Assembly (NCBI GenBank): GCA_951394405.1
Contig: OX596335.1
Coordinates: forward strand, 4,340,001-4,404,000
DNA: 64,000 nt
Source: Coprinellus micaceus
Taxonomy: Eukaryota > Basidiomycota > Agaricomycetes > Agaricales > Psathyrellaceae
Direction of reading: 5' to 3'
Position numbers and translations under genes: made by a program. Positions 31,381-50,060 of the stretch are shown piece by piece. The notes beneath the pieces are model-generated. The model ran no database searches. It saw nothing but the letters and a program-made list of their open reading frames with translations, and was not told the DNA's origin. Each line of letters starts with the position of its first letter. Within the stretch, counting starts at the first letter, position 1.

Positions 31381-32837
31381 TCAAGTTTCAGAAGAGGCTG
31401 CTCCAGCCGCCCCGTGTCTGAAGCGCGCGAGGGCGTCCCACGTCTCTGGATAGTCCTTGAGAAGCTTCACGCGGTCTTCAAGGTATTTTAATTACACTCC
31501 CCAGCGCAAAGAATAGAAGAGGCCCACTTACCTGGGTACCAGAACAGCCCTGTCGGCGCGTGGTCAAGCTGGCTGCGACTCAGCTGCGAACGGATGGTTC
31601 GCAGAGCCTTCAGCGCGTCTGAGGCGGAGGGGATATCGGTTTCTTCCCCCCTCACCAAGCTTTCGAAAAACGGACTGATCTCCGGGACTGCGTCCTCGAT
31701 ATGCTAGAGAATGAATCACTTAGGTGACGTTTGCCTAGTCGTAGGTTGAGAAAAAGACTTACGCGGATGCTTCGCTCGAGGGTGTACGCTAGGGCTCGGA
31801 CGTCGTCCTTGAAAGGGTTGCATGCCCCTTCCTGCACCCGCATATAACAGTTCTGGGCACTCATCAAACGCGGTACAGATACCTCCCTGATATCGGTGTC
31901 TTCTGGGAAAATCAGAGCAGCGTCGTAGTCGATGTACGCATAGCGTACTTCCCCTGGCTCTCGTAGAGTGAAGTAGTGCTCGTCGGGATCTACCAAGGCG
32001 TTCATCACGACGTTCGTCTCGAAGATGTCTCTGTGAGCAATGCGCTTTTCGTGCAGGAATTCTAGACCCTGGGAAATGGGGGTTAGGCCGACCACGTCGA
32101 GCAGTGCATATGGTAGTTACGGACCTCAAAGAAGGTTTCGGCGACGTCAAGAAGCTCAGATACGTTCCTGAAGAAGATTTCTGACCGAGCTAAAGCGATG
32201 ATGTCCCACCTAAGAGCCACCATTGAGCAGTGTTCCCAGCGAATTGTAGAGAGTTCTCTTACCGCGGCATGACAACGAATACGAAGTCCTTGTGGGTGAG
32301 CCATTCAAGAACGGGCACGGTATAATTCCTGGGGTCCCGTCTGGCGTCAGGCGTATTGAGACGCTGGTAAACCTTCAATTCGTCAGACTCTTCTGAGCCG
32401 GCCACCAGTCTACGGGGGTGTGAGCGAACGAGCGTCACTAGGCGAAGTACCACAACCCACCGCAAGATCACTTCGCGTCCTTTGGTATCTCTGGCGGGCC
32501 ACACCCTCATACTCTATGAAAATCAAGAACGCTGAGTACCACCGGATTAAGGAGCTGCTCGGGTATTGCGTACCTGGATGAAAGGGAACGCCAGTTCACT
32601 ATCCTTGGTGGTGAGGCGGCGAGCGTATGGATAGGGGTCCGGGACCGACCCGACCACTGTCGCAGCTGGGGGTGGGTATTTCGGAGGCATGGCGCCCTGT
32701 CTGATGGAGGGGAAGTCGTACAGATAGTACCCTCGAGATTCAAAGAACGATGATAGGGAGTGCCAGTTGGCGCTGGCGTCGTGGCATTCTTGGACGTATC
32801 CAGGTCCGTCTTTCGCCTTCGGAGTCCAAGCGTCCAT
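31381..32837 (-). CDS. Atypical kinase-like protein, copy B (module 1)
   Basis: Seven exons, about 360 residues. Exon 1 holds the N-terminal domain (MDAWTPKAKD, SANWHSLSSFFESRGYYLYD, DPYPYARRL). Exon 2 is VWPARDTKGREVILR, with Arg at the VAIK position. Exon 3 has ESDELKVYQRLNTPDARRDP, VPVLEWLTH and VFVVMPR. Exon 4 has VSELLDVAETFFE. Exon 5 has GLEFLHEKRIAHRDIFETN, VRYAYIDYDAALIFPED and CNPFKDDVRALAYTLERSIR. Exon 6 has IEDAVPEISPFFESLV, and exon 7 ends TWDALARF...SSET. Junction phases (0,2,2,0,0,1) are the same in all copies. The catalytic HRD and the Mg-binding Asn and Asp are kept. The activation segment looks very short and lacks an APE. It faces the small gene at 33306 across 468 bp. Confidence 0.8.
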
Positions 32838-33144
32838 GTCGCGTCGCGCTGCGAGAAAATGTATGAAAGGATTGGTCCCTCGGCAGGGTCAAGGCCCCGT
32901 AATTATAGGGGAGCCACGTTCATTCAACAGTCCTGCCTTTGTCTGCGATAAGCCGTGATGGCAACCGCTACCAATTGGCACTGACCTGGTCGTTGGACCA
33001 TGAAACAAACATGAGCGCGCCAGCTAGGATAAAGTACCATGAAGTTCGAGTTGAGGGACAATGAAATTGGAAGAGAAGCACTGTGGTCCGCGTGGCTCTA
33101 GACCGCCCAAAGGGATCACTCCCACGCGCGCACCCGGATTTGGA

Positions 33145-33154
33145 TAGGCGCCCA
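33145..33154 (+). promoter_or_regulatory. TAGGCGCCCA motif in module-1 promoter
   Basis: The decamer sits in a longer block (GGATTTGGATAGGCGCCCA; GATTTGGATAGGCGCCCA in module 2) repeated in the module-2 promoter at 36055-36064. It lies 161 bp before the small-gene ATG and 308 bp before the kinase-like ATG. A TTTAAGG element (33213-33219) lies nearer the small gene and is likewise repeated in module 2. These may be shared control sites or simply duplicated flank. Confidence 0.35.
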
Positions 33155-33305
33155 CTGTTACTGGCATCAATTCAACAATGGTCTTCTGTACTTGGCCTCG
33201 AGGTGCCGGGGATTTAAGGGAATGGGTAGCCAGCTGTGATTTCCTTCACTTTCCCTCCCATTCCTCCACTGTATCCAAGCACCACAGTTTTCCAGAGCCA
33301 CCACA

Positions 33306-33667
33306 ATGCCTCGTCAACCCGATGTGAGTACCTTAGTTCAACCGGCCAGTGGCCCCTGATTGCTTTCTAATATCTCGCTCCCATCGCAGGCTGAGGGCTT
33401 CAAGTTTGCCGTCGGGGAGATGATAACCGTTAAAGAGTTCTACGCGCGCGATGGCGTATTTCTTAACGCTGATACAGCGGGAAAGATTTTATCTAGGAAC
33501 AAGTCCAAGGCCCACGTATGTGTCCTTCACCTTACTTCCCTCGGATGAGCACTTCATTGACTCTTTTCGTAACTTCGGTTAAGAATGGAGGCCCCGTCTA
33601 CCAAGTTCGGGTCAGCGGTGAAGGCCACTTCTATCCTGTGTTGGAGGAAGCCTTCAAGGATGATTGA
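33306..33667 (+). CDS. Small paired protein S1, 75 residues
   Basis: Three exons (33306-33323, 33390-33515, 33584-33667), all phase 0. The start is MPRQPD. The body has FKFAVGEMITVKEFY, GVFLNADTAGKILSR, PVYQVRVSGEGHFYPVLEEA. The alternation (VGExxTV...G...AxIL...VYxVxV...FxPVLEEAF) suggests an SH3-like or KOW-like beta barrel; this is inference. There is no signal peptide, membrane segment or cysteine. It faces kinase-like copy B. It has the same exon lengths (18, 126, 84 nt) as the gene at 36191, with about 60% identity. Confidence 0.75.
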
Positions 33668-34168
33668 GGACATTCGCACCAGATGTGAGAACAGTATTCT
33701 GCCCCGGGAACACGTCGCTAATCTCGATACAGGGCGCAAATTATCTGGATCACCACCACTTCTCTCTCTGTCTCGAGGAAGCCTTCAAAAGCATTGAACC
33801 GCGGCCGGCGCACACACATGGGCACTCTGGGTCTTGTCTTGTATTGATACCTATTCTCGCTACAACAGTAGGGGCCCGCGGATACCTTCTCCTGTATCGC
33901 TACTTCGTCTTTATACTTGCACCATCTAATTATCACACATCTTCCCTTATATTGTGCAAGCTCGTGTCCTCACGAGAGCGCAGACGTGACAGCTTTGAGC
34001 TTCGCACCTCCCGATCCAATATATCCGTTCCTCATTCACTCCTCGCTTACCTTCCATCAGTCTTGGTACCTTTCTCTTGAGGTTGCTTTCATTGAGTAGG
34101 GAGCGACGGACAAGCCCCTCGCACGCCGAGCAGGAGACCGATTCTGAGTGTTCAAGATCCCCCGTGTA

Positions 34169-34240
34169 ATGTCGCAGGTAACAAAGATCAATATCTACGG
34201 CGGAGAGGTACAGTATGTCGAAGGCAATCCAGGGGACAAG
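34169..34240 (+). pseudogene. Orphan 5' exon (possible truncated gene)
   Basis: ATG opens a 24-codon frame (MSQVTKINIYGGEVQYVEGN...) that ends exactly at a gtaagg donor, but the sequence then runs straight into the 3' end of kinase-like copy C. The 'INIYGG.VQYVEGN' pattern recalls N-terminal linkers of some fungal NLR-like proteins; that link is tentative. No further exon is visible, so this may be a gene cut off when module 2 was inserted. Confidence 0.3.
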
Positions 34241-34255
34241 GTAAGGTAGGGCCCT

Positions 34256-35740
34256 TCAGGCATCGGAAGAGACTGCTCCAACCTCATTTCTAAAGCGTGT
34301 GAGGGCATCCCACGTCTCTGGATGGTCGCTGAGGAACTTAACACGGCCTTGAGGAAACTCAGTATATACCCTCTTTCGCAACGCTGGACGAGGTTGGCCA
34401 CACACCTGGGTACCAGAACAATCCTGTCGGCGCGTGTTCAAGATGGTTGCGACTCAGCTGCGAGCGGATGGTTCGCAGGGCCTTCAGCGCGTCTGAGGCA
34501 GTGGGGATGGTGCTTTCTTCCCCTCTCACCAATCTTTCGAAGAAGGGACCAATCTCGGGGACTGCGTCCTCGATGTGCTAGCGGATAAGTGCTTCAGGCG
34601 ACTTTCTTGTGGATGTAGATCGAAACATGACTTACGCGGATGCTTCGCTCGAGAGTGTATGCTAGAGCTCGGACGTCGTCCTGGAATGGATTACATGGTC
34701 CCTCCTTTACCCTCATGTAACAGTTCTGGGCCCCCATAAGACGAGGTACCGATACCGTGGTGATATTGGTACCCTCTGGAAGAACAAGCGACTTATCATA
34801 GTCGATGTACGCATAGCAAACTTTCGCTGGGTCCCTGAGGTCGTAGTAGTAAGCATCAACGTCGACGATGGCGTTCATCACGACGTTCGTTTCGAATATG
34901 TCCCTGTGGGCGACGCGTTTCTCGTGCAGAAACTCCAACCCCTAGGCAAGTGGTGCATTATCGGTCAGCCCTGCTGGGAACGAGGGGGGAGACAAGGAAC
35001 AGTGGACACGAACCTCGAACAGGGTCTCAGCGACAGCAAAGAACTCGGAGACGTTTCTGAAGAACACCTGAGGCCTGGCCAAAGCGATGATGTCCCACCT
35101 AAGCACGTCCGGTAGCATGAGTGTCGCCCATGAAAGAGACAAGAAGAACTAAGCGAGCCTTACCTCGGCAATACGACAAAGACAAGCCCGCCGTGTTCGA
35201 GCCACTCAAGTACTGGCACAGTGTGATTCCTGGGGTCCTGTCTGGCATAGGGAGTGTTGAGGCGCCTGTATACCTCGAGCTCGTCAGACTCCGTCGGGGG
35301 TGCTACCAGCCTGGAGGGTAATTCATGTGAACGATTGTGGGCCAAAACGGGGTAGGCGACTGCAACGCACCGGAGGATTACTTCGCGGCCATGCATGTCT
35401 CGAGCAGGCCACACCCTCATGGACTGGCCCCGGAACGACACTTGAGTACAAGTCAGGATGCGGAGCTAAGGCGACAGACCTGGATGAATGGGAACGCAAG
35501 ATGCTCCTCCTCGCTAGTGATGAGGCGAGCGTACGGATAGGGATCAGGGCTGGCAGCGATGTGTACGGAAGGCCGGGGGGACTTGGGAGGTGTGGCGCCT
35601 CTATGAAGGGAGGGGTAGTCGTACAAAAAGTAGCCGCGAGACTCGAAGAACGACGACAACGAGTGCCAATTGGCATTCGCATCGTGGCACTCCTGGATGT
35701 ACCCTGCCACATCCTTCGCTTTGGGTGTCCAGGCGTCCAT
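34256..35740 (-). CDS. Atypical kinase-like protein, copy C (module 2)
   Basis: Closest paralogue of copy B, with the same seven exons and phases. Landmarks: MDAWTPKAKDVAGYIQECHD, ANWHSLSSFFESRGYFLYD, VWPARDMHGREVILR (VAIK Lys replaced by Arg), DELEVYRRLNTPYARQDP, VFVVLPR, GLEFLHEKRVAHRDIFETN, VCYAYIDYDKSLVLPEG, CNPFQDDVRALAYTLERSIR, and the end VKFLSDHPETWDALTRFRN. It is intact, with no stop or frame break in my model. The start is the ATG of MDAW, matching copy B; an in-frame upstream extension has no ATG. It faces the small gene at 36191 across 450 bp. Kinase activity is not assured, given the missing lysine and short activation segment. Confidence 0.8.
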
Positions 35741-36054
35741 TGGTTCAGTCAAAGGTCAGCGGCAAAGGGCTTCAGAGGGAGGTGTTTTGGTCCTTTTCCT
35801 CGAATTCCGTCCTTTAAATACGGGGTAAGGTAGCCACTGGCCACGCTCACCCTCTGCCCTGAAGTTCGAGAATGATGGCAATCACTGCCGCCTGGGCGAC
35901 AGAACCAGAAAGAGGCTGCGCCCCGACGAGAAAGGCGAAGGAAAGTACCATGAACTCGCCTCCGGAAGCAGAAGTGAACAAAGAAAGTGAAGAAGGTCCG
36001 CGTGGCTCTGGACTTCTGCTTAGCATCACTCCCACGAGCGCACCCCGATTTGGA

Positions 36055-36064
36055 TAGGCGCCCA
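36055..36064 (+). promoter_or_regulatory. TAGGCGCCCA motif in module-2 promoter
   Basis: Same motif and neighbouring ATTTGGA as at 33145. A TTTAAGG element follows at 36111-36117, 74 bp before the small-gene ATG. Confidence 0.35.
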
Positions 36065-36190
36065 GAGAGAACCATCAAACGGACAATGGCCTGCCTCGAG
36101 GCTGGCGGAATTTAAGGGAGAGGGTCTCTAGCGCAGGCTACCCCAGTTCCCTCTATCAAACCCAGCACCACAGCTACCCATACCACCACC

Positions 36191-36552
36191 ATGCCGCGCA
36201 CACGAGATGTGAGTTGATTCCATTTTTCCATCAGTGCGAGCAACCGAATCTGGGGTCCTAAAACCGACGCACCGCCGTATTTCAGGCCGAGGGTTATAAG
36301 TTCATCGTAGGAGATTGGGTCGTCGTTGAGGACGACTATGCGCAAGACGGTGTCTTTCTCAAGGCCAGGACCCAGGCCCAGATTTTGTCTAGGAGCAAGT
36401 CCGCGAAATATGTACATCCACTCCGATGCACTTCAGCTGAACGACCTAGCTAATAGTGTTTGACCCAGGACGGAGACCCCGTTTATCAAGTCAAAGTCAG
36501 CGGCTCTGGGCACTTCCATCCCGTGCTCGAGGAGGCCTTCGTGGACGAGTGA
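36191..36552 (+). CDS. Small paired protein S2, 75 residues
   Basis: Exons 36191-36208, 36286-36411 and 36469-36552, phase 0, with lengths identical to S1. The start is MPRTRDAEGYKFIVGDWVVV; then GVFLKARTQAQILSRSKS, and the end PVYQVKVSGSGHFHPVLEEA. It is a clear paralogue of S1, with differences spread through the protein and all in frame, which suggests it is maintained as a coding gene. It faces kinase-like copy C. Fold (SH3-like) and function are inferred or unknown. Confidence 0.75.
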
Positions 36553-37249
36553 GCAGCCCTATGTCCGGACATGCATGATGTGCGTACGTCTCCCTCTTCC
36601 GAGCCGGAATTTAGTCCCCTGACCCGAATACAGGACGTGAATCGGGCCTCACTCTTCAGAACTAGCGAGCTAGATCACCGCCACTGTTCTCCCACTCTGG
36701 ATGGAGTCTTCCAAGGGCATTGAATCGGGGCCGGCGCACACACCGCGGCTCTCCGGCCTTCCGTAGACTCCCTCCCGCAGCTGTTCTCGCGAGAGTAGTA
36801 GGAGTTTGCGATCGCCGTATCCTGTATCACCCCCTAGTCATTGTACTCGTACCAATGAACGCGCACTTCACTCCCCCTTATTTTTATTGTGCAAACCCGT
36901 TGCTCTCTGTTCAGATGCCTGGGCAGTGCCACCAGCCGAGCCCCTCGCGCGAGACGAAATTGAAAGCGGTGAGAGGTAGGATAGCCCATCTCGGTCATCG
37001 ACTCGGGGATCGACTTTCCATCCTTGACCTCGACATAGCGACAAGTTGGATGGCCCGTATCCGGTCAGGAAGAAACCAATGATTAATGAGTGAGTGAGTA
37101 TGTAACAAAACACAGCGTCCATACACATCCCAAGATTCCAAGCAAGTAAACCCTACATCGATCGACTACTGCCGTTCGCGGTGGCACCAAGTCCGCCCTT
37201 TAAATAAAACGGCCCGTCGCCCTGCCTCTCCACGCGAACCCCCACCTCC
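36553..37249. other. Intergenic stretch
   Basis: The first part (about 36690-36760) resembles sequence downstream of S1 (about 33775-33815), including GGCCGGCGCACACAC and a nearby GCATTGAA. It is duplicated 3' flank of the small genes. No gene is seen. Confidence 0.45.
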
Positions 37250-38533
37250 TCAAAACCACATAATCTTGGAAAACATATACCCCGCTTCATCCGCCCTCCC
37301 AATCCCACCCCGCTTCTCCACATGCTCCTGGCACGTAAACACCAGCCTCTTCTCCCCCTCCTCTCCCTGTTTGCCTCCCTCCTCACTCTCGGGCCGCCTA
37401 AAGATCTCGTCAACCCTCTTATCCAGCCCCTCATGCCTCCCCGAACTCCGAATCGCCATGAACATCCAAAACACGCCTCCAGGCGACAGGAGCTTCGAGA
37501 CGCAGTCGCGTATCCACTCCGCGTGCATGGGGTGGTACACGACATCAGCAGCAAGGATGATGTTGAAGGGTTGATCGAACGGCGCCTCGGTCGTTGGGGA
37601 CTCCCAATCAAGGGTGTGAACTGCAATCGGCGAACGCGAAGGGAAGTTGGTGTCGATGTTCCTCCTCAAGTTCGCAAGGACGTCTGGATGATAGTCCGTC
37701 GCTACGATCTCCGGTGGAGGGTCCATCGCACCGAGTACCTTTGCAGCGACGATGCTCAGCATCCCCGTCCCTGCCCCAAGCTCCAATATCCTCAGGGGCC
37801 TGCCACGTTCCTCCACACGACGCGGATCCGCCAGGTATTTTTGGGCGTCAAGGCACAGCCTCTCCGCGAACAAGATACAGCTCCCCCAACTCTGCAGTCC
37901 AACCGACGTATGGTCCTCCGTGCTCACCGGGGCGTCGTTCAGTTCTATGAGCACTGTGCCATTGTTAGTTGATGTGGGGAAGGCGAACGAACGTGTGAGC
38001 TCGACGAGCTCGGCTTCGTCGTCGTCCCCGTTGAACGCGGAGAGGATGCGGATCGCGTCCTCGAGGAGCTCGGACCGGAGCGTCCCTTCGGTGGACCCTT
38101 CGTCGACGGAGGCGACCCAGGGCTCGGCGCGGGACATGAACCCTGTGAGCCATTTGATGGCGAACGAACGTTCGAAGGGGTCCCCACGGAGGACTTCGAG
38201 GGGGTCGTCTTCATCGTCGTCTGCTGGGGCGGTTGGTTGAAGGGACTTTTGTGCTTGAGAGACTCGACCGTTGGTGGTAGAGGTATCGTCGTCGTCGTCT
38301 TCCTCGGCAGAAGCGTACCCAGAATCGATGACTCGAGGAGTCTCGTCACCCTTCGCATGGGAGGCTTTGAGAACAGCCAGCGGCCCCTTGGTGCCGGGTA
38401 TGAAGACGGTGGAGCGTTGGTGGGGAAAGTACACCGAGCGCAGGCTCTGCAAAGCCTGGTGGACCTTCTGCCCTGGTGTCGACAGCAACCGGCCCAGGGG
38501 AGGTAGGATAGAGGTTGGTGCCGAGGAGTCCAT
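37250..38533 (-). CDS. Lysine-methyltransferase-like protein (Methyltransf_16 type)
   Basis: A single exon of 427 residues. The SAM-binding motif I is RILELGAGTGMLSIVAAKVL; VATDYHPDVLANLRRNI follows as motif II; the post-II motif is FNIILAADVVYHPMHAEWI, with the D-V-V-Y signature of the METTL21/EFM group; then LLSPGGVFWMF. The 'GLQSWGSCILFAERL' segment before motif I is also typical of this seven-beta-strand protein-lysine methyltransferase family. The N-terminal about 100 residues are acidic and low complexity. The substrate is unknown; elongation factors are common for this family. It is a housekeeping gene interrupting the kinase-like array. Confidence 0.88.
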   Translation of the reverse strand: MDSSAPTSILPPLGRLLSTPGQKVHQALQSLRSVYFPHQRSTVFIPGTKGPLAVLKASHAKGDETPRVIDSGYASAEEDDDDDTSTTNGRVSQAQKSLQPTAPADDDEDDPLEVLRGDPFERSFAIKWLTGFMSRAEPWVASVDEGSTEGTLRSELLEDAIRILSAFNGDDDEAELVELTRSFAFPTSTNNGTVLIELNDAPVSTEDHTSVGLQSWGSCILFAERLCLDAQKYLADPRRVEERGRPLRILELGAGTGMLSIVAAKVLGAMDPPPEIVATDYHPDVLANLRRNIDTNFPSRSPIAVHTLDWESPTTEAPFDQPFNIILAADVVYHPMHAEWIRDCVSKLLSPGGVFWMFMAIRSSGRHEGLDKRVDEIFRRPESEEGGKQGEEGEKRLVFTCQEHVEKRGGIGRADEAGYMFSKIMWF

Positions 38534-38918
38534 ATCTACTATCCAAAATCGTCGGAGAAAAAAAGATCGTTGTCGTTAGTACGGGTGGTATGTCGCCAGC
38601 AGGTGAGTATATCTTCTAGAGTTGTTATCTGTCTTCTATGACTCTATGGTATCTTCTATAGTCGAAATGGCCGTCTATGTTGAATGCTTTCTTCAATTAA
38701 CACAACGGCAAGGGCTCTTTCAAACCCTTGCCGTCAGAGTGAAGGGAACGCGCAGGGCATGAGGAGATGGTGGTGGTACAGACAGAAGGAATGAATTAAA
38801 ATTCAAGCCAAATTTTGATTTCCTACCCCGTCGGACCGAAACTCCGGATCAGAGTCAAAGCGCCCAACGGTGATTGGCTGCAGTGAACACAACACAGCCA
38901 AACAACCCACCTTGTACA

Positions 38919-39233
38919 ATGCCCACACCCATGTCGACGACGTCCGCGATAACGATCAGCTATGAAGTCAAACCCCCGAGCAGCGTCGACACCGACGGGC
39001 TTGATACGAGCAAAATGTACGCCATTGCCGTGAACACACCGGTATCCGAGGGGCAGAAGGCATATTATACGAGTCTGAGAGAATCGATCGCACATGCGAA
39101 GGACCTTATTGGGGAGGACTTGACGGTATGGAGAGATCTGGTGGGGAAAGCGGAGTTGACGAAGGAACCGATGGCGAAGGCGGATGACGAGGAAGAGGAG
39201 GAGGAGGAGGAGGAGGAGGAGGAAACGGCGTGA
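38919..39233 (+). CDS. GON7-like small protein (EKC/KEOPS subunit candidate)
   Basis: A single exon of 104 residues. The middle has KAYYTSLRESIAHAKDLIGE followed by DLTVWRDLVG, a helical pattern like fungal GON7, the small accessory subunit of the KEOPS complex that makes t6A in tRNA. The C-terminus is a pure acidic run encoded by a GAG repeat (about 39188-39226). The family call is tentative because the protein is short and poorly conserved. The start is the ATG of MPTPMS; a second ATG follows four codons later. Confidence 0.55.
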   Translation: MPTPMSTTSAITISYEVKPPSSVDTDGLDTSKMYAIAVNTPVSEGQKAYYTSLRESIAHAKDLIGEDLTVWRDLVGKAELTKEPMAKADDEEEEEEEEEEEETA

Positions 39234-39761
39234 AGGCCTACCAATCAACCGCTCCTGATACTACCCGACAGTCGGCGAATGCAGCAGTTCGGACTACAGG
39301 ACGGGCCACCAACCCTCAGAATTGGGCGAACCTCCGGGATTGATTCTCATAGAAGAGTGGGATCGCATTTCTATCGCTTCGACCTTCGCTTGGACTCGGC
39401 CACAGAATGTCCCGCACATATGTTCTGGCAACGACTGCATGCGGCCCATCGACCGAGGATGTGGAAGGAGTCCATCTTCCCTGTACTCATGCAGTGATCC
39501 ATTACGCGGAATCATACAGTATGACTACGGGAGACAGCATTTTCCCTGAAGAATCTTCGGCGCACTGCCTGCTTTCCGTGTCCCCCGATGTACCCCTCCC
39601 CCGCTTAAATGTCTTGCCACCAGTGTACCCAGTATCTCGCATTGGCGAACATATTCCCTGAGCCCCCCGATCAAACTCGAGAATGCTGAACTGGGAATTG
39701 GTTTCTTGGTATCTACACGAATTCGAGACGATAAATCCGCGAAGGTAGATACTTGCTCCAG
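39234..39761. other. Intergenic stretch
   Basis: No supportable gene or repeat between the GON7-like gene and the 3' end of kinase-like copy D. Confidence 0.4.
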
Positions 39762-41253
39762 TTAGTGATCTCTGCACCCGAATTCCACTCTAGTCAATGC
39801 TTTTCCTGGCAAGAAGGGTGCTGGTGTGAGCTGATGAAATGTCCTTGGGCAGTATGCTGCTTACCATCTCTCCAGGCTACGTACAGGGGCTCTGACTCCA
39901 TAATTGACTGGGGAACCGTTGACCGAATGCGGCGCAGCTCGGCCAGCCAGTCCGACGCAGGCGGGAGCCATTCGTCGGTCATGAATAGCATGTCGTCAAA
40001 CCACTCGCCGAAATCGGGGACAACGTGTTGGAGATGCTGTACAGGAATGTCAGTACCGCAGAAACGTCGCCAGAACGAATTTGATGGAGAAACAGAGACG
40101 TACTCGAATCCATCGCTCCAAAAAGGTCGCAAGGAATCTCACGTCGTCTTTGAACGGGTTGCACATTCCTTGAGTCATACCAAGGTTCCATGCAGGACGC
40201 CTCATGAGCCGTTCAACCAATACGGTGGAGGTGTCCGTCTCCTCTGGAAGGACGAGCGCCGAGTCCCAGTCGATGAAGGCGTATTTAACCTTCCCCGGTT
40301 CTCCGAGACCAAACCGATGTTCGTGCCCCATGATCAAATTGAGGACAGTGTTCGATTCGAAGATGTCCCGATGAGCAATACGATGCTCGTGCAGGAACTC
40401 CAATCCCTGCATCCGAATGAGCGTTGTGGCGTACACAATCGTATTCAAACCATCTCACCTCGAAGAGCATCTCTGCAACGTCGAAGTATTCCGATATCTT
40501 GCTAAACCGTATGTGGGTGCCAAACACACGGTCATCCCACCTTCCCTTAACCGGTCAGTAGCTAGTCAGGTGAAGGTGAGAAAGGCTTACCTTGGCATGA
40601 CGACAAAGATGAGTCCATCGAAGTTTAAGAACTCGATGACAGGCAGAGTATGATTTCTCGCGTCGGCCCTGGCTTGAGGTGAGTTGAGACGTCTAAGGGC
40701 CTTCAGTTCCTCAGATTCGCTTGGCCCGGAGACCATTCTAATTTTTTTAGACCTTAGCATTCAGACTTTTCCCACTAAGATGCAGAGTCGTACCGAATGA
40801 TGACTTCACGCCCATGCACATCACGGGCAGGTCGAAGTCGGGGCCTCTAAAAACGAGATGTGAGTCTGGGGCCAGAGAAAATCAGAGCGCACATACATGC
40901 TCTGTGAAGAATTTGACGCTATCTTCATCTTGATACGCCCTGCGAGCATAAGGGTAAGGATCTGAGCTGTCCGTCTCCTTCGAAGAAGAGGTGCCAGATG
41001 GTGGGAGATGGGTGTAACCGCGCGTCCCAGGAGCCAAGGAGTACAAATGATAACCACGAGATTCGAAAAAAGGGGCAAGGAATCGCCATGTCCCGTCCCA
41101 TGTACGAAGTTCCTCGTCATATACGGCATCGAAGACATCAGCCTTCATTGTCCACGAGCCAACATTTTCAATCGCGACAGGAAATCCGTGTTGCCAGGAC
41201 CGGAATGTCCATTCAGCGGATTCTTGAAGTGAGCCGAGCTTCATGAACTTCAT
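39762..41253 (-). CDS. Atypical kinase-like protein, copy D (module 3)
   Basis: Seven exons in the family layout. Exon 1 starts MKFMKLGSLQESAEWTFRSW and includes WRFLAPFFESRGYHLYSL and SSDPYPYARRAYQDED. Then RLRPARDVHGREVIIR (Arg at the VAIK position), SEELKALRRLNSPQARAD, IFVVMPR, ISEYFDVAEMLFE, GLEFLHEHRIAHRDIFESN, VKYAFIDWDSALVLPEE, CNPFKDDVRFLATFLERWIR and PDFGEWFDDMLF. The last exon is the least certain: an intron after AWRDG gives a short tail ending at 39762; reading through would stop at 39794. It faces the 123-residue small gene at 41510 across 256 bp. It is more diverged from copies B and C than they are from each other. Confidence 0.75.
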
Positions 41254-41509
41254 CAGTTGGGGTGAATGGACTGTGGTGGGAGGACTCGTCGAAGGGTATC
41301 GATGGTGGCCGTGAGGGTGCAAGAGTGGCAGGTTCGTACGTCGTGATGTTAATGGCAGAGCCCGTCACGTGCAAACGACGTTTTAGGCAGGTAAGCGCAA
41401 ATACAGCCAACTTGTACGCATTTGGAATGTAGGGGGAGTACATATTTGACGAGCTCTGGCCTTCGCGTCCCTTTCTTCCCTAACATTCCAATCATTCTCA
41501 AAGACCAGA

Positions 41510-41992
41510 ATGTCCACTCACCCACACGCGGCCACGGCATCTGCGATGTCAAACGTCCAGGTGGCGCGCCTCGCGGCGACACGAGCGAATGGGAGAATGA
41601 TGACCCTTACCCCACCCGGCCCACACCCTACGACAAACCCACAACAACCTACGACCGTTCAGAGGGTAAGTATGGTTCTACATCCTGGACGATGGCGCCC
41701 TTTCTAACTGTCGATCCGTAGTTCCTCCCTAACGATCGCATTCAACTACGATGCACGGTTCGAGAGAACCCCAGTGACGAAAACAGCGCTATTCTGGCAT
41801 GCGTAGATGAAATCGGGACCATTACGAGCAATGGAGCTTCCAACCGTTATCCTGTGAGTTCACCCCACGTTCGAAACACCATTTCGTATGTTAACACTGG
41901 ACTCCTAGGGAATGCATACCTATGGCATCGTGTTGGAGAACAGGGGAGGGGGAGTGTTCCCCATACCCGAGGTTGCGCTTAAGCAGGCTTGA
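41510..41992 (+). CDS. Small paired protein S3, 123 residues
   Basis: Exons 41510-41665, 41722-41853 and 41909-41992, all phase 0 with canonical ends (gtaagt...ccgtag, gtgagt...cctag). The N-terminal about 50 residues are Ala/Thr/Pro-rich and extra relative to the other small proteins. The core has NDRIQLRCTV, ILACVDEIGTI and HTYGIVLENRGGGVFPIPEV. This matches S1/S2 in pattern (..GxI...YxVxV..G...FxPVLEEA) although identity is low. Its last exon is 84 nt, as in S1 and S2. It faces kinase-like copy D. It is likely the same fold with an added tail. Confidence 0.65.
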
Positions 41993-42723
41993 AGGGAGCT
42001 GATTGGATAGACTCCTCAAGGAGGCGAGTGCCCTTGGGCAACGATTTCAAGTACCTGCCGTACAACCAGGCTTGCCACGACAATTTATGCAGTAATCGAC
42101 CTTCCCGTATCTACGCCGCTGTTCCTTCTATAATAGTAAAGGAGGGTCCCTTGTATTGATGTACTATGTCTGCTCAACGGCGCGAAGACGGGAAGAACCC
42201 TCTGTGGGGTACCCGAAGCCTTGAAAAAAGTCACGGGCTTCGACGTAACCCATCCTGCCGCTCGGTCATTGCCCTAGGGCCACTCGGGGTGCCCTAGTAG
42301 CCTCAGTTCAAGGCACATGCTTCACACTCGGTGTAAGTAATGGTGACTGGTCACCCATACAAGTCGAGTACCAAGATCTGACATTCCGTTTCCCCGAGTC
42401 CGTAAGTCCTCTGGCTGGAGGGTCCACTGCCTTAAATACACTTCTCTCGCGAACCGCTACGAGATTCCACACGCAGCAGACGTCGTTGACCGATGTGTCT
42501 TGTCCTAGCTGCCCGCCTGAAGGGTGATACGTTTGACCTCGGCCTCTGACCAATACGCCTCGCGCAAGACCTTGCGTCGACAGCGAATCGACGTCTGCGT
42601 GCCTCTACGAGCTGCCTGGCTACTGCTCGGCCAGAGGTACTAGCGACTACTAGCAAATGCTCGAGCTCATGGCCACGCCTGTCAGAATTACTGGTTCCAA
42701 CTCTATGTTTGGGGAAGTCTGCG
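41993..42723. other. Intergenic stretch, partly duplicated sequence
   Basis: From about 42411 onward the sequence is about 90% identical to 45327-45632. No independent gene is supported; open frames in it are preserved only because the copies are recent. Confidence 0.5.
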
Positions 42724-43330
42724 TCACTTTCTGATCCTACCTGCGGAGAGAACTACCGTTAGAACAGGCACAAAGCGTTTGAACCTGCGGGGACCTGCTA
42801 ACCGTTCTTCCAGAAGCTACCCCCTGGCGGCTGCCTCAGCTGAGCATCCGTCAGCCTGGAACGGAGTTCTTGGAAGGATTCGAGTGCCTGGGCGGCCGAG
42901 GGTACGTCTTCGTAGTCGCAGTGAAGGATCGAATCGAAGAAATCCCCGATTTCAGGAACGACGTTTTCGACAACCTTCGTGCGGACAACGGAAATTAGCG
43001 CCCGAAGTAGGCGACCGAGATGAATAGAGCTAGACTTACCCGAACCATCGTTTGGGTCATGCTTGTCAGGCACAAAACGTCATCTTTGAATGGGCTGCAG
43101 AGTCCTGGTGGGTATCCCATGTAGCGGATGGGGTTTCGCATGAGGCGATCGGTGCGAAGATTGGCTATGTCGGAATCCTCGGGAAATGTGATGGAGGCAT
43201 CGAAGTCGATGTATGCATAACGGACTGATCCGGAAGACCTGAGGTTGGCGACGGTCTTCCCCATAGGCAGGAGGACGTTCATGACCGTATTTGAAGTGTA
43301 TATATCACGGTGGGCAATCCTTTGCTCGTG
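42411..43330. repeat. Segmental duplication, copy 1
   Basis: It matches 45327-46260: first the non-coding 3' flank of the kinase-like gene (GTCC..TGGCTGGAGGGTCC at both starts), then the last three exons. Identity is highest in the flank and exon 6. The left edge is abrupt: upstream sequences are unrelated. Confidence 0.75.
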
Positions 43331-44208
43331 AAGAAACTCCAGGCCCTGGTGGTGCGCATGGCAAAATCAGCCTGAGGTCCGAGGGATACACGGGTACTTC
43401 TAACCTCATAAAATACCTCCGCAAGGTCAAGAAGCTCAAGCACTGTAGCTGCGGACGCAAAAGGGCTGTGAGCCACGATATCCCACCTATGCGGTAAAAA
43501 GTTAGAGCACTCGACGTGCAGGCGCTAGGGCAACGCTACCTTGGCATGACCACAAACACTAGGCCGTCGAACGTTAAATACTTGAGGGCTGGTAACGTAT
43601 GGTTTCGAGGGTCTTTTCTGGCCTCAGGTGTATTGAGACGCCAGAAGACCTTCAGCTCCTCAGAGGGACAGGGCCCACTTGACGCCAAGCTAATTGGGTG
43701 CTGTTAGGAAGGTAATCAGGCGATAAGGAAACTGGCGCTACATACCGAATGATAACTTCGTGGCCATTTGCATCCCTGGCTGGCCAAACCCTCGTCGTCT
43801 ATTCGCCGCCAGAGTCAGCATCTGATAGTTGTGGGAGGCGGGGAGTATACCGAAAGGAAGTAAAAGTCAAGGTCTTCTTCTTGGTTATAAGCAGTGCTGG
43901 CCCATGGCCACTGCATCGTGCCAATATGAAACGACTTGGGATGTGCGGGCGAGCGAGCGCCTTTTCGACTCCCTGGGATATACTCGTACAGGTACAGCCC
44001 ATGGGATACAAAGAAAGGAGCCAGGAACTGCCATCTCGTCCAGGTATCAAGCCGTTGTCGATCCCGGTCCTCCTCGGTGCGGGTTTCCGGGAGACTAGAC
44101 GCCCATTGTGATGTGTCAGAGGGTATTGGATCACGATGGATCCAAGAGCGAATAGTCCAACGAGCAGTATCAATAACAGAGCACCCCTTGACCTTGACTA
44201 GTCGCATA
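42724..44208 (-). CDS. Atypical kinase-like protein, copy E (module 4)
   Basis: Seven exons, about 375 residues. The start is MRLVKVKGCSVIDTARW, aligned with copy F. Then WQFLAPFFVSHGLYLYEY, TRVWPARDANGHEVIIR (VAIK Lys to Arg), CPSEELKVFWRLNTPEARKD, VFVVMPRWDIVAHSPF, LLDLAEVFYE, GLEFLHEQRIAHRDIYTSN, VRYAYIDFDASITFPED, CSPFKDDVLCLTSMTQTMVR, and NVVPEIGDFFDSILHCDYED. After FWKNG a gttagc...ccgcag intron leads to a five-residue last exon, GRIRK then stop. Copies F, G and the fragment at 45045 show the same 'G-x-x-R-K-stop' tail, which supports it. It faces the small gene at 44489 across 280 bp. Confidence 0.8.
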
Positions 44209-44382
44209 ATGGAGAAGGACACAGGAAGGCCCGAGGCAAGGAAGTTTGGCACCGTTCAAGGGGTACCAGGAAGAGATGATGACTCGCCACTGAAATGGTG
44301 ATTCGGATGCTGTTGAATCAACGCCACGATTTGTGTGTAGCTGTAAGCGCCTGTGTGCGACGATCACACCGATAGGGGCCTC

Positions 44383-44388
44383 TATAAA
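44383..44388 (+). promoter_or_regulatory. TATA box of small gene S4
   Basis: TATAAA, 101 bp upstream of the ATG at 44489, inside the 280-bp divergent promoter. Confidence 0.4.
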
Positions 44389-44488
44389 CTGCATGGTTCC
44401 TCACATAACCCGCCTCAAACCCATATCCTGGAGTATTGCCACTCCTGGCGGACCCCACTCATCCTATACCTAACTTGCCCATACCAGA

Positions 44489-44831
44489 ATGTCCAACAGT
44501 ACAAGCCATCCTTCCTTGGTGAGTCCGTCCAGAGTTTGGAATCCGATCAGCCATGCTCACGCGTCGTTCAGTACGATGTTACAGAGACTGTAACGATTGA
44601 AAGAGGCAACTATGTTGAAGGAGCAGTTGGGGCTACCGGGACAGTCTCTTACAAGGTAGAGTCTTCGGGCCGCGTGAGATCAATTCATTTTGGAACCGTG
44701 CCTACTCTTGTGCTGATAAGTTCACTCAGGGCTGGTGTTATACGGTCACAACAGAGGATGGGACGGTTGTAGAAAACGTGGCTGAAGACGATCTGTCTCC
44801 ACCTGCAGACAACGCTGCCAAAACCCCTTGA
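44489..44831 (+). CDS. Small paired protein S4, 77 residues
   Basis: Exons 44489-44518, 44572-44673 and 44730-44831, all phase 0. The N-terminus MSNSTSHPSL is followed by TETVTIERGNYVEGAVGATG, VSYKVESSGR, then GWCYTVTTEDGTVVENVAED and DLSPPADN. The pattern (VTIERG...GATGTV...WxYxV...VxEDDLxP) is a convincing SH3-like barrel layout, though no family match is claimed. It is a close paralogue of S5 and S6, with the same second-exon length (102 nt) as S5. It faces kinase-like copy E. There is no secretion signal. Confidence 0.75.
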
Positions 44832-45044
44832 CGCCGGATAAAATCTACAAATGCAGTGCCGATGATAAGTCGCCCCCGTTGGCTTGCAATCAGGACCGAA
44901 GAGCATCGCCCCTAGGCGGAAGGAATATGCTGGGGGATACCTGGGTGCAACGTACAATAAGTGTATAGGGTAGGGTAGTGATTGGGATATGAAAGTCGTG
45001 TCTACGATCCAAGGACATGGGCGGCGGACGTCCAAAACGCGTCG

Positions 45045-45285
45045 TCATTTTCGGGTTTGTCCTACACAGGGAGTCATTAATGGCGTAGTCTACCGGGTCG
45101 AGAACGGCGGATTCGTTACCTTTCCAGAAGCTACCTCCAGGCGGTTCTCCTTGTCGATCGTGCGCGACATCAGCTCGCAGCTGGCGAAAGCTTTGCAGAA
45201 CTTGCAAGGCCGAAGGCACGTCATCATAATTGCAATGCAATATTTTGTCGAAAAACAGGCCGACCTCCGGAACAACATTGGGTTA
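45045..45285 (-). pseudogene. Truncated kinase-like gene (last two exons only)
   Basis: It reads NVVPEVGLFFDKILHCNYDD, VPSALQVLQSFRQLRADV and PPGGSFWKG, then a gtaacg...gtgtag intron and the tail GQTRK-stop. These are exons 6-7 of a copy closest to G. Exons 1-5 are absent; upstream sequence switches within about 40 bp to the duplicated block starting at 45327. It is a fragment left by the rearrangement that placed copy F here. Confidence 0.7.
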
Positions 45286-45326
45286 TGGCGGTTAGACGTA
45301 GCACATCGTCGTGTCATAACATGTGA

Positions 45327-46260
45327 GTCCTGGCTGGAGGGTCCACTGCCATAAATACACTTCTCTCTCGAACCGCTACGAAATTCCACACGCCGCAGAC
45401 GTCGTTGACCGATGTGTCTCTTCCTAGCTGCCCCCATGAAAGGTGATACGTTTGACCTCGGCCGCTGACCAACCCGCCTCGCGCAAGGCTTGCGTCGACA
45501 GCAAATCGACGTCTGCGTGCCCCTACGAGCTGGCTGGCTACTGCTCGGCCAGAGGTACTAGCTACTGCTAGCAAATGCACATGGCCACGCCCGTCAGAAT
45601 TATCGGTTCTAGCTCTATGTTTGGGGTCTGCGTCACTTCCTGATCCTTCCTGCGGAGAGAGGTACCGTTAGAACAAGCACAAAGCGTTTGAACCTGCGGG
45701 AACATGCTAACCGTTCTTCCAGAAGCTGCCCCCTGGTGGCTGCCTCAGCTGAGCATCCGTCAGTCTGGAGCGGAGTTCTTGGAAGGATTTGAGCGCCTGG
45801 GCGGCCGAAGGTACGTCTTCGTAGTCGCACCGAAGGATCGAGTCGAAGAAATCCCCGATTTCAGGAACGACGTTTTCGACAACCTTCGTGCGGAAACGGA
45901 AATCAGGGTTCGAAGTAGGCAGCAGAGGTGAATGGATCTCGACTTACGCGAACCATCGTCTGGGTCATGCCCGTAAGGCACAGAACGTCGTCTTTGAAAG
46001 GACTGCACAGTCCTGGCGGGTACCCCATGTAGCGGATGGGATTACGCATGAGACGATCGGTGCGAAGAGTTTCGATATTGGAACCCTCGGGGAATGCAAT
46101 TGACGCATCGTAATCGATATAAGCGTAGCGGACTGAATCGGCCGACCTTAGGTCGAAAACGTCCTCCCCTCTATGATGGACGAGAGCGTTCATAACTGTA
46201 TTTGACAAATGTATATCACGGTGGGCCACCCTTTGCTCGTGAAGAAATTCAAGGCCCTGG
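45327..46260. repeat. Segmental duplication, copy 2
   Basis: Counterpart of 42411-43330, covering the 3' flank and exons 5-7 of copy F. Small indels distinguish the copies, for example loss of six bases around 45576 relative to 42661. Confidence 0.75.
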
Positions 46261-47132
46261 GGGAGTTAAAGGGGCTATAATCAGTCTAAATCTGGATGGG
46301 AATAGCAATAGATAGCAGTTACCTCGTAGAATACCTCGGTAAGTTCAAGTAACTCCAGCACCGTGTTTGCGGGGGCCCATGGATTATAAGCCATGGTATC
46401 CCATCTATCCCAGAGGGAGTCAAGAGAGCATCTTCGGACATCCGAGGCAGTCTCACCTTGGCATGACAACAAAATCCAAACCATCGAACGTCAGATATTT
46501 GAGGATCGGCAGAGTATGATTCCGAGGATCTTTTCTGGCTTCTGGCGTGTTGAGACGCCGGAAGACTTTCAGTTCCTCAGAGGGACAAGGCCCACTCGAT
46601 GCCAGTCTGAAGAAATAGTGGCGTCAGCCTACAACCGGAACCAGAGCCCGTACTACTGACCGAATAATAACCTCGTGGCCGTTTGCATCCCTCGCTGGCC
46701 AGACTCGTGTCGTCTGTCAGTGAAACCAGTGAAGGCCCGGGGTCAAGCGCGTATCGTGTGGGAATTGCGGAAGCGTACCGAAAGGAAAGAGAAGTCGACA
46801 TCTTCTTCCTCGTCGTAAGCCTTACGGGCCCATGGCACAGGCATCGTGCCGGAATGGGTCGACTTAGGCCATGCGGGAGGACAGGCCGCTCCTTTCCCCA
46901 TCTCTGGGAAGTACTCGTACAAATGAAGTCCTTGAGAAGAAAAGAAGGGAGATAAAAATTGCCACTTCGTCCAAGTTTCGAGTCGTTGTCTCTCGCGGTC
47001 CTCTTCAGTACGCTCCCATTGGAGAGTGCAAGCCCATTGTGCTACGTCACGGGGCACTGGATGACCCTGCATCCAAGAGCGAAGAGTCCAGCGAGCAGTA
47101 TCTAGGCGAGATTCCCCTCTGATTAGTCGCAT
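45633..47132 (-). CDS. Atypical kinase-like protein, copy F (module 5)
   Basis: Seven exons, intact. The start is MRLIRGESRLDTARWTLRSW; then WQFLSPFFSSQGLHLYEY, TRVWPARDANGHEVIIR (Arg at VAIK), CPSEELKVFRRLNTPEARKD, FVVMPRWDTMAYNPWAPA, LLELTEVFYE, GLEFLHEQRVAHRDIHLSN, VRYAYIDYDASIAFPEG, CSPFKDDVLCLTGMTQTMVR, NVVPEIGDFFDSIL and the tail FWKN|GRIRK. It is the closest paralogue of copy E, but identity is higher in the 3' third and flank than in exon 1. That fits partial gene conversion or a duplication boundary inside the gene. It faces the small gene at 47427 across 294 bp. Confidence 0.8.
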
Positions 47133-47426
47133 TGTCGAGATGAATAGAAGAGAAATAGAAGCAAGTGTTTGCGGAATGAAGCGAAAAGGAAGTTGCCAAT
47201 GAGACTTGGAGAAATTCGGCCTTGTTTGCCCCCGATTTGTGATTGTGAGCGGTTGTGTGTGACAGTGTGCATGCTGATCGTGATGATCATAGCGATGAGT
47301 GCCACTCGAAACTTATTGAACTGCATCATCGGCTACGTTGACTGCTGGAACCTAGTTCCGAGTCGTGTTGACACCATCAACGATCCCTCTTCGACCAAAG
47401 CGATATTTCCCGTCCCAGCCGCAGAT

Positions 47427-47768
47427 ATGGCTTCCACTGGCAACAACACTGATAAGAATGGTCCTTTGGTAAGCGCGTCCTCGGCTACCCGACCTACTTC
47501 GAACAGTCTTACTGAGCGACGACAGTATGAGATGAAAGAGACGGTGACCGTTGAAAGGGGCACCTACACAGGGGCCACAGCTGGGGTCACCGGGAAGATA
47601 AAGGAAAGGATTGAGTCTGTGGGTAGGGTAAGATTTAGTGGATATCCTGAGGGTCCTACTCGATACTCATTAATTGCTCAGGGCTGGCGTTACGTGGTCC
47701 AAACACCAGAAGGAGCGATGATTAACGATGTGGCCGAAGACGATCTTGCTCCAGCCGCTGACCCTTGA
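47427..47768 (+). CDS. Small paired protein S5, 76 residues
   Basis: Exons 47427-47468, 47526-47627 and 47682-47768, phase 0. Start MASTGNNTDKNGPL, then EMKETVTVERGTYTGATAGV, TGKIKERIESVGR, GWRYVVQTPEGAMINDVAED, DLAPAAD. Junctions and core match S4 (about half the core residues identical). It faces kinase-like copy F. No TATA box is seen. Confidence 0.75.
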   Translation: MASTGNNTDKNGPLVSASSATRPTSNSLTERRQYEMKETVTVERGTYTGATAGVTGKIKERIESVGRVRFSGYPEGPTRYSLIAQGWRYVVQTPEGAMINDVAEDDLAPAADP

Positions 47769-47987
47769 ACCTGGAACGGGAGAGGCTGTGGATGCATGAT
47801 ATGTACTAAGTTGCCACTGAAGACGGCTGATAGTTATTCCAAGAACTCCTACGGAGTCGTTAGACACACTCCTCAACCGGGTCTCAGCGTTTATGTCTTG
47901 CAATTATCAGATGGCAAGTCTTGCAGATATCAAGAGCTGACGAACGACCGACTCGCAAAGTAGCCAGAAAGCCCAGGCGAATGCTGT

Positions 47988-49449
47988 CTATTTTCTAGGG
48001 TGACCTGTGCCAATGAGTGAGTAGGGTGCCTACCAGTCCGCCAAAGATGCGCACCTTTCCAAAATCTACCTCCTGGCGGTTCATTTTGTTGGCGGTACGT
48101 TACATCAGCCCGGAGTCGGCGCAAGCTCTGCAACACCTGGGTAGCCGAAGGCACGTTGTCATAATCACAATGCAGTATACCGTCTAGGAAAGGGCCGATC
48201 GTTGGTACCACGTTTTCAATGACCTACGGCATTATCAGAATCGCCATGGAGGGTGCGTAGCGAGTCACAAGAACCCTTACCCGGACCATAGTCTGAGTTA
48301 TGGCAGTCAGACACAACACATCGTCTTTGCATGGGTCACACAAGCCAGGCTTGAGCCCCATATAAAGGACAGGGTTGCGCATTACCCGCTGAACGCGCAA
48401 TGTTAAGAGGTCAGCATCCTCAGGGAATGCGATGGAAGAATCAAAGTCGATGAAAGCGTAGCGCACAGATCCAGGGGTTCTCAGGTCGTCCAATTCCTCC
48501 CCTGGTGTCGCAAGGACGTTCATAACAGTGTTAGAAGGATGAATATCCCTATGCGCTATTTTCTTCTCGTGGAGAAACTCGAGACCCTGCAAATGCGGTG
48601 AGACGGGGCACAAGCTTGTAATAGCGTTGTACCCGACAGACCTCATAGAAGACTTCCGCGAGATCAAGGAGCTCCGATACATTGTTAGAGGTGACCCACG
48701 GACTGTGAGCGACGGTGTCCCACCTGTTCAGAACGAGTCATAAATAGCGCTTGTGGAGACGGAGGATGAGCGTACAAACCTTGGGAGAACCACAAATATC
48801 AATTTACTAAATGTTAGATATTTGAGGACAGGAAGTGTATGGTTTCTCGGGTCTTTCCTAGCCTCTGGGGTGTTGAGGCGGAGGAAAATCTTCAATTCCT
48901 CTGAAGGGTCAGGGCCAGAAACTAGACTGAAGCCAAGGCCCTGTGTGAGCTGCACAGCCAGCCCCAGCTTGTGCCAGTATCCACTTACCGAATAACGACC
49001 TCATGCCCTTCAACGTCTCTGGCGGGCCATATTCGAACGGTCTAATGAGCGAATTGAATGAGAAATTGGGCCACTCATTACACTAGAATAAGACGACCTA
49101 CCTCCAAACAGTCGAAGTCAAGGTCTTCCTCCTGAGTGTACGCCTTGCGAGCCCAGGGAGGCCGCTCTGAAGTCGAGTGCCTGGCCTTAGGAACCACGGG
49201 AGGACTAGCCCCTCTATCGACATCCGATGTATAGTCATATAGGTACAGCCCATGTGATACGAAGAACGGTGCCAGGGACTTCCATCTGGACCAGGTGTTC
49301 AGCCATACCTGCCCTCGCTTTTCCGGGTTCGAAACGTCGGAGGCATCACAAATCCACTGGGACATTTCGTTTGGGACCGGAGAGCGGTTGAAAGAGCGCA
49401 ATGTTGACATAGCCGTATCTATAACTGACTCTGACTTGAGTGGTTCCAT
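47988..49449 (-). CDS. Atypical kinase-like protein, copy G (module 6)
   Basis: Seven exons, intact. Start MEPLKSESVIDTAMSTLRSF; then WKSLAPFFVSHGLYLYDY, PPWARKAYTQEEDLDFDC, VRIWPARDVEGHEVVIR (Arg at VAIK), PSEELKIFLRLNTPEARKD, IFVVLPRWDTVAHSPW, LLDLAEVFYE, GLEFLHEKKIAHRDIHPSN, VRYAFIDFDSSIAFPED, CDPCKDDVLCLTAITQTMVR, NVVPTIGPFLDGILHCDYDN, and the microexon tail FWKG|HPRK. The catalytic HRD/N and DFG-position Asp are kept. It faces the small gene at 49695 across 245 bp, and its terminal exons are the nearest match to the fragment at 45045. Confidence 0.8.
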
Positions 49450-49568
49450 TTCTGAGGTGGAGCGCTGGGAAAAGGGTGAGTGGTATGAGGGGGAATGGCA
49501 GAAGTGCGAACACTCGGAATCTGTTGTACCCCGATTTGATTGTCACTGTCACATCTGCCCGCTGCTCC

Positions 49569-49574
49569 TATAAA
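49569..49574 (+). promoter_or_regulatory. TATA box of small gene S6
   Basis: TATAAA, 121 bp upstream of the ATG at 49695, in the 245-bp divergent promoter. Confidence 0.4.
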
Positions 49575-49694
49575 TCCCTTCCGTAGTTCCATGTTCAGGA
49601 TAGTTCTCCCCTTGCTCTCGACGCGAGGCAAGTGTGAGCCTCTCGGTGACTTTGAGCTGCTCTCCGAAAGACGGAAGTGGTAAGGGTCGGAGCT

Positions 49695-50060
49695 ATGGTG
49701 GCTCATCCAGCTCTTGTGCGTCTCCCGCTGTCCCGTTTCCTCCTCAGTCCTGAGTGGCCTGCCTCTGACAATCCCCTCCTCGTAGTACGATATCAGAGAG
49801 CCAGTCACCATCGAGAGTGTAGACTACATCGGAGCGACGATTGGAAGCACAGGTACGATAGTGAAGCCTATCAAATCAGCAGGGGTAGGAATTCTTTTTA
49901 ACTGGATCCATTCGTGCGTTGACGCCTCACTCCCGGTTCCTCGCCTGACTAGAGCTGGCTTTACGATGTGAAGTTGGATTCGAATGGCAAGATAATCAAA
50001 CGCGTGAAGGAAGATGACCTGGCCCCTCAAGCTGCGTCAGACAACGAGTCGCCATATTGA
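49695..50060 (+). CDS. Small paired protein S6, 75 residues
   Basis: Exons 49695-49715, 49786-49884 and 49953-50060, phase 0. The first exon MVAHPAL mirrors the SHPSL ending of S4's first exon. The core is REPVTIESVDYIGATIGSTG, IVKPIKSAG, then SWLYDVKLDSNGKIIKRVKE, DDLAPQAASDNESPY. The final EDDLAP motif and the W-x-Y after the last junction match S4 and S5. It faces kinase-like copy G. Confidence 0.7.

What the first reader, a model, noticed from the sequence alone, without database searches (positions are those of the whole stretch)
31381..50060. Six head-to-head modules pairing a kinase-like gene with a tiny SH3-like protein gene
Seen directly: six times, a minus-strand seven-exon kinase-like gene (starts 32837, 35740, 41253, 44208, 47132, 49449) faces a plus-strand three-exon small gene (starts 33306, 36191, 41510, 44489, 47427, 49695), with 245-470 bp between ATGs and never the reverse. 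All twelve frames are open. Paired retention through duplication suggests the two proteins work together, for example the small protein regulating or being recognised by the kinase-like one. Tandem, fast-changing pairs are typical of conflict, incompatibility or recognition loci, but that is speculation.
Basis: partly seen in the sequence, partly recalled or inferred. Interest (0 to 1): 0.88.

Follow-up and report, generated by a model that had tools for sequence, protein, structure and literature searches.

The report
Paired dead-kinase and tiny-barrel genes
In the genome of what is likely an inky-cap mushroom, six neighbouring copies of one two-gene unit each set a kinase-like gene, predicted to be catalytically dead, head to head with a tiny gene predicted to make an SH3-like barrel, and the two products likely work together, although no interaction has been tested.

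Summary
Six minus-strand, seven-exon kinase-like genes each face a plus-strand, three-exon small gene across 245-468 bp. Added: a seventh kinase gene (23855-25343, +) without a detected partner, and a leftover kinase exon at 45109-45282. In the 50-Mb assembly, close relatives of either gene were found only here; more distant kinase-like genes lie on C4 and C9. The kinases group with proteins named AgaK1 in other agarics (8 of 19 homologues). All seven have Arg for the beta3 Lys and D[YFW]D for DFG. The Coprinellus micaceus orthologue of S6 (73 of 74 aligned residues identical) is modelled as an SH3-like barrel and comes from a contig of the same length (801,800 bp) as two C. micaceus kinase homologues. 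Both partners are under purifying selection, which argues against a fast-changing conflict locus. I infer a co-regulated pseudokinase-plus-partner unit. Against: sequence does not show the three small-gene lineages to be homologous; K7 lacks a partner; only 3 small-protein homologues were found against 19 kinases; interaction is untested.

The parts
31381..32837 (-). K1, AgaK1-type kinase-like gene, 7 exons, 373 aa
   Evidence: splice model; homologues
33306..33667 (+). S1, small gene, 3 exons, 75 aa
   Evidence: purifying selection against S2 (Fisher p 1.2e-8)
33085..33154 (.). 70-nt block of the shared K1/S1 promoter region, 83% identical to 35995-36064 between K2 and S2
34256..35740 (-). 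K2, kinase-like gene, 7 exons, 371 aa
36191..36552 (+). S2, small gene, 3 exons, 75 aa
39762..41253 (-). K3, kinase-like gene, 7 exons, 373 aa (last exon uncertain: end it differently)
41510..41992 (+). S3, small gene, 3 exons, 123 aa; least supported
   Evidence: no relative found
42724..44207 (-). K4, kinase-like gene, 7 exons, 378 aa
44489..44831 (+). S4, small gene, 3 exons, 77 aa
45109..45282 (-). leftover kinase exon between S4 and K5
   Evidence: E 9.1e-4, 75% over 126 nt to the K6 exon
45633..47132 (-). K5, kinase-like gene, 7 exons, 378 aa; 3' end nearly identical to K4's
47427..47768 (+). S5, small gene, 3 exons, 76 aa
   Evidence: metagenome relative P0022
47988..49449 (-). K6, kinase-like gene, 7 exons, 373 aa
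49695..50060 (+). S6, small gene, 3 exons, 75 aa; 73 of 74 aligned residues identical to C. micaceus P0020
23855..25343 (+). K7, solitary seventh kinase-like gene, 7 exons, 388 aa, HGD for HRD

Best explanation
The locus holds six tandem copies of a two-gene unit, each a seven-exon AgaK1-type kinase-like gene facing a three-exon small gene, and each pair likely works as one signalling unit in which the small predicted SH3-like barrel would bind its predicted catalytically dead kinase partner. Shown: gene structures, orientation, the changed catalytic residues, purifying selection on both genes, and relatives of both genes in C. micaceus on a contig of the same length. Predicted: the kinase fold and the barrel fold. 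Inferred: the Lys-to-Arg change removes phosphotransfer, so the kinase-like protein acts as an allosteric scaffold or sensor; the shared 245-468 bp between the genes drives both together, so the partners are made at matched times and amounts; the barrel binds and regulates its own kinase-like partner; tandem copying gave parallel versions tuned to different inputs. The input may be microbes met by the mycelium, because one Coprinopsis cinerea AgaK1 gene is induced by bacteria.
For: Six intact modules with one geometry. Purifying selection on both partners. C. micaceus: P0002 (82% to K5), P0013 (60% to K1) and P0020 (73 of 74 residues to S6) each from a contig of 801,800 bp. Beta3 Arg in 7 of 7 window kinases and 22 of the 25 sequences with a residue there, aligned on the Arg of 'EVAIRQ' in the PAK1 chain of 1f3m. 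DFG glycine absent in 7 of 7. Eukaryotic kinase fold modelled at pLDDT 92.5, structural matches including the pseudokinases CASK and TRIB1. Barrel modelled at pLDDT 82. A 70-nt block in the intergenic region of modules 1 and 2 is 83% identical while the kinase genes are 70%; CSGATTTG lies in 4 of 6 intergenic regions and at 2 other places in 64 kb. CC1G_09799, named AgaK1, is up 5.9-fold with E. coli and 7.1-fold with B. subtilis (PMC4704728 Table 2).
Against: No interaction, co-expression or transcription was tested. Tandem duplication alone copies neighbours together. K7 has no detected partner. Only 3 small-protein homologues were found against 19 kinase homologues, and the S1/S2 search found none. 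Homology between the three small-gene lineages is not shown by sequence (hhalign probabilities 0.3-1.7%), and the small-gene tree has no starred branch. The aC Glu, HRD Asp, catalytic-loop Asn and DFG Asp are kept in 7 of 7 window kinases, which a fully dead protein would not need. No 7- or 8-mer is shared by all six intergenic regions, and CSGATTTG over the whole window is no commoner than chance. Whether CC1G_09799 is the homologue P0012 is not established.
Confidence: 0.4

Rival explanations
1. Passenger model: the kinase-like and small genes only share a promoter region and were copied together; each has its own job and they do not interact.
For: Tandem duplication of the whole unit explains the geometry. 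K7 and most of the 19 kinase homologues have no detected partner. S6 is far more conserved between species (98.6%) than K5 (82%) or K1 (60-72%), as if under a separate constraint.
Against: Both genes are kept intact in 6 of 6 modules despite saturated synonymous change between lineages, and kinase and small-gene relatives share a contig length in C. micaceus.
Confidence: 0.3
2. Active-kinase model: the Arg is tolerated, the proteins still phosphorylate, and the small protein is substrate or activator.
For: Catalytic-loop Asp and Asn and the DFG Asp are kept in 7 of 7 window kinases. Three relatives (P0012, P0014, P0019) have the Lys.
Against: Arg at the Lys position in 7 of 7; the DFG Gly is replaced by Asp in 7 of 7. 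That Lys-to-Arg there usually kills catalysis is recalled knowledge.
Confidence: 0.14
3. Conflict or recognition locus: the pairs are alleles or copies of a self/non-self or anti-parasite recognition system under diversifying selection.
For: Tandem expansion, exchange between K4 and K5 3' ends, small genes changing faster than their partners, bacterial induction of one C. cinerea AgaK1 gene; two-gene clusters are known in fungal immunity (PMC10197012, passages).
Against: dN/dS below 0.5 in the 4 unsaturated within-lineage pairs; S6 nearly unchanged between species; no cell-death or NLR domain reached even a weak match in the 9 proteins scanned. Whole-gene dN/dS can hide a few diversifying sites.
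Confidence: 0.12

Closest known systems
AgaK1 protein kinases (Coprinopsis cinerea, Ephemerocybe angulata)
   Same: 39-76% identical to window kinases in the comparisons made; 8 of 19 homologues bear this name; six of the E. angulata homologues come from a contig of 584,214 bp, so clustering is shared
   Different: C. cinerea P0012 keeps the beta3 Lys and DFG; window copies have Arg and D[YFW]D. No small partner gene is described in the passages seen
FunK1 / Pkinase_fungal (PF17667)
   Same: fungal kinase-like expansion; weak partial match (K1 14.2 bits)
   Different: below the curated cut-off of 24.1 bits
Pseudokinases CASK and Tribbles
   Different: only 10-12% sequence identity, tied with active kinases; no shared partner
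KOW / Tudor / PetP SH3-like barrels
   Different: no Foldseek match at E <= 0.001, no Pfam family, no sequence relative in PDB
Fungal two-gene cell-death clusters (het-S/nwd2, gasdermin/protease)
   Same: small two-gene units kept together (PMC10197012, passages)
   Different: no HeLo, NACHT, gasdermin or protease domain matched in the proteins scanned

Membership tests
AgaK1 family | sequence homology to proteins named AgaK1 | tested here: met
   8 of 19 hits so named, E 6e-107 to 1e-147
Active protein kinase | beta3 (VAIK) lysine | tested here: not met
   Arg in 7 of 7; position checked against PAK1
Active protein kinase | HRD aspartate and catalytic-loop asparagine | tested here: met
   7 of 7 for both (K7 reads HGD)
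Active protein kinase | DFG motif | tested here: not met
   D[YFW]D in 7 of 7; the first Asp is kept
Active protein kinase | phosphotransfer | not testable with these tools
   needs an enzyme assay
Protein kinase fold | bilobal kinase fold | tested here: met
   on the C. micaceus homologue P0002
Pfam Pkinase PF00069 | score above the curated cut-off | tested here: not met
   20.9, 12.3 and 21.9 bits for K1, K7, K6 against 31.7; the other four not scanned
FunK1 PF17667 | score above the curated cut-off | tested here: not met
   14.2 (K1) and 11 (K6) against 24.1; K7 no match
SH3-like barrel (S6 lineage) | small five-strand barrel | tested here: met
   model of P0020
SH3-like barrel (S1/S2, S3) | same fold | not tested
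Peptide-binding SH3 domain | SH3 family profile match | tested here: not met
   no SH3 family listed for the six small proteins at E <= 10
Fungal two-gene cell-death cluster | known cell-death or NLR domain in either partner | tested here: not met
   nine proteins scanned (K1, K6, K7 and the six small ones)

The most novel reading that the evidence does not exclude
A new kind of fungal two-component signalling unit: a dedicated single-barrel ligand and a dead kinase, co-transcribed from one bidirectional promoter and copied as insulated parallel channels, serving mushroom innate responses to microbes.
Probability: 0.15. Interest if true: 0.8.

Novelty: new variant of a known kind. Interest (0 to 1): 0.5.

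Why it matters
Agaric-specific kinase families have no known function. A fixed small partner beside a predicted dead kinase gives a direct handle: pull down one, look for the other. The Lys-bearing C. cinerea relative and the Arg-bearing tandem copies also make a natural series for asking how an active kinase becomes a scaffold, in mushrooms that can be grown and some transformed.

Tried and rejected
The S1/S2 protein search found no candidate. hhalign between small-gene lineages A (S1, S2), B (S3) and C (S4-S6) was not significant, so a full kinase/small-gene tree match is not claimed; the small-gene tree has 0 of 6 starred branches. A motif shared by all six intergenic regions was sought and not found for exact 7- or 8-mers. 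A weak S4 hit on C9 (E 0.415 genome-wide) reads through a stop and was dropped after looking at the frames. Distant kinase-like genes on C4 and C9 were fetched; no convincing small-gene match lay near them (best S hits E 0.002 in L052 and 0.031 in L047), but divergent ones could be missed. Mating-type homeodomain pairs were considered because of the divergent layout and dropped: the proteins are not homeodomain proteins. Literature: 'AgaK1' gave 3 papers, of which passages of PMC4704728 and PMC13214342 were seen and PMC4215621 only as a listing; 'head-to-head' + 'gene pairs' + Coprinopsis gave 1 paper, listing only; 'pseudokinase' + mushroom gave 68 with 15 listed, + basidiomycete 19 with 10 listed; FunK1 + Agaricomycetes + kinase gave 0. 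No listed title describes this pairing; subscription papers are not held, so absence from print is not claimed. Passages of PMC10197012 and PMC12881547 were seen. The absence of listing for a fold in VIA results is not used as evidence.

Full report
What is there. The window is C2:4340001-4404000 of an unnamed 50.3-Mb, 17-contig assembly. Its closest protein relatives are Coprinellus, so it is likely an inky-cap mushroom. Splice models give six kinase-like genes on the minus strand (K1-K6, 371-378 aa, seven exons each) and six small genes on the plus strand (S1-S6, three exons each), head to head with 245-468 bp between ATGs. A seventh kinase gene, K7, lies on the plus strand at 23855-25343, and no small gene was found in front of it. 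A leftover kinase exon lies at 45109-45282, and the 3' ends of K4 and K5 are 88-94% identical while the rest of the coding sequence is 67-84%, a sign of recent exchange between copies.

How far the families reach. With K1 as query all 24 matches at E <= 1e-5 lie in this window; with C. cinerea P0012, 28 of 29 matches at E <= 1 do, the other being C3, E 0.2. With the more distant Gymnopilus P0014, weaker matches appear on C4 and C9 (E 1.7e-6 to 0.3) and one on C2 (E 0.3). The small-gene queries match only their own lineage here, plus chance-level hits. These counts are lower bounds by the tool's own note. In the protein database the kinase alignment found 19 homologues, 8 of them named AgaK1; the small-protein alignment found 3, and S1/S2 alone none. 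P0002, P0013 (kinases) and P0020 (S6 orthologue) of C. micaceus are each listed with a longest contig of 801,800 bp; a shared contig is inferred from that length.

Age. In the kinase tree (26 rows, 12 of 23 inner branches starred) K5 groups with C. micaceus P0002 apart from K4 (97/95), K1/K2 with P0001 and P0013 (99/99), and K7 with E. angulata P0009/P0011 (97/91); K3's place is open. So several copies predate the split of these species. The small-gene tree has no starred branch.

Selection. Where dS is not saturated, dN/dS is 0.12 (K1/K2), 0.14 (K4/K5), 0.15 (S1/S2) and 0.46 (S4/S5); replacement differences are rarer than synonymous ones in all 8 pairs tested. The small genes change faster than their partners but are constrained. 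S6 is 73 of 74 residues identical to P0020, more conserved than the kinases (K5/P0002 82%, K1/P0013 60%), which I cannot explain.

Regulation. A 70-nt intergenic block is 83% identical between modules 1 and 2. CSGATTTG lies in 4 of 6 intergenic regions, always on the + strand, and at two other places in the window; over the whole window it is no commoner than chance, and it was picked after looking. These are leads for a shared promoter element.

Reading. I propose a pseudokinase plus dedicated small partner, co-expressed and copied as a unit (confidence 0.4). The link to microbes rests on one C. cinerea gene, CC1G_09799, named AgaK1 and induced 5.9-fold by E. coli and 7.1-fold by B. subtilis in Table 2 of PMC4704728 (passages seen); its relation to P0012 is unknown. 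A second paper reports a down-regulated AgaK1 homologue in a fungal co-culture (PMC13214342, one passage). The passenger model is the main rival (0.3).

Neighbours. The modules lie among ordinary genes: SMC hinge, Gal80-like oxidoreductase, TIP49/RuvB-like, mitochondrial-type ribosomal L2, a lysine methyltransferase between modules 2 and 3, Utp14 and annexin.

Noticed in passing
42411-42985 and 45330-45894: 3' ends of K4 and K5 and the flank beyond are 92-94% identical, far above the rest of the genes: recent gene conversion or unequal crossing-over, with an older exon left at 45109-45282.
   Followed up: partly
31083-31236 and 39041-39201: Inverted repeat, 84-87% complementary: a degenerate copy of the end of a gene near 39.2 kb lies beyond the 3' end of K1.
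   Followed up: no
3-1382: Open frame of 460 aa with tetratricopeptide repeats, cut by the window edge.
   Followed up: no
33745-33830 and 36670-36756: Conserved stretch (76%) after the S1 and S2 stops; it partly repeats the end of the coding sequence and may be a non-coding last exon.
   Followed up: no
G000 C4:723001-728803 and C9:2672913-2682084 (L047-L050): Distant kinase-like genes, also clustered.
   Followed up: partly
N-terminal linker of K1, K2, K4-K7: A PxxP motif lies between the N-terminal segment and the kinase domain in 6 of 7 window kinases, a possible but unproven docking site for a barrel.
   Followed up: no
49695-50060: S6 is 73 of 74 residues identical to its C. micaceus orthologue while kinases are 60-82% identical; cause unknown.
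   Followed up: no
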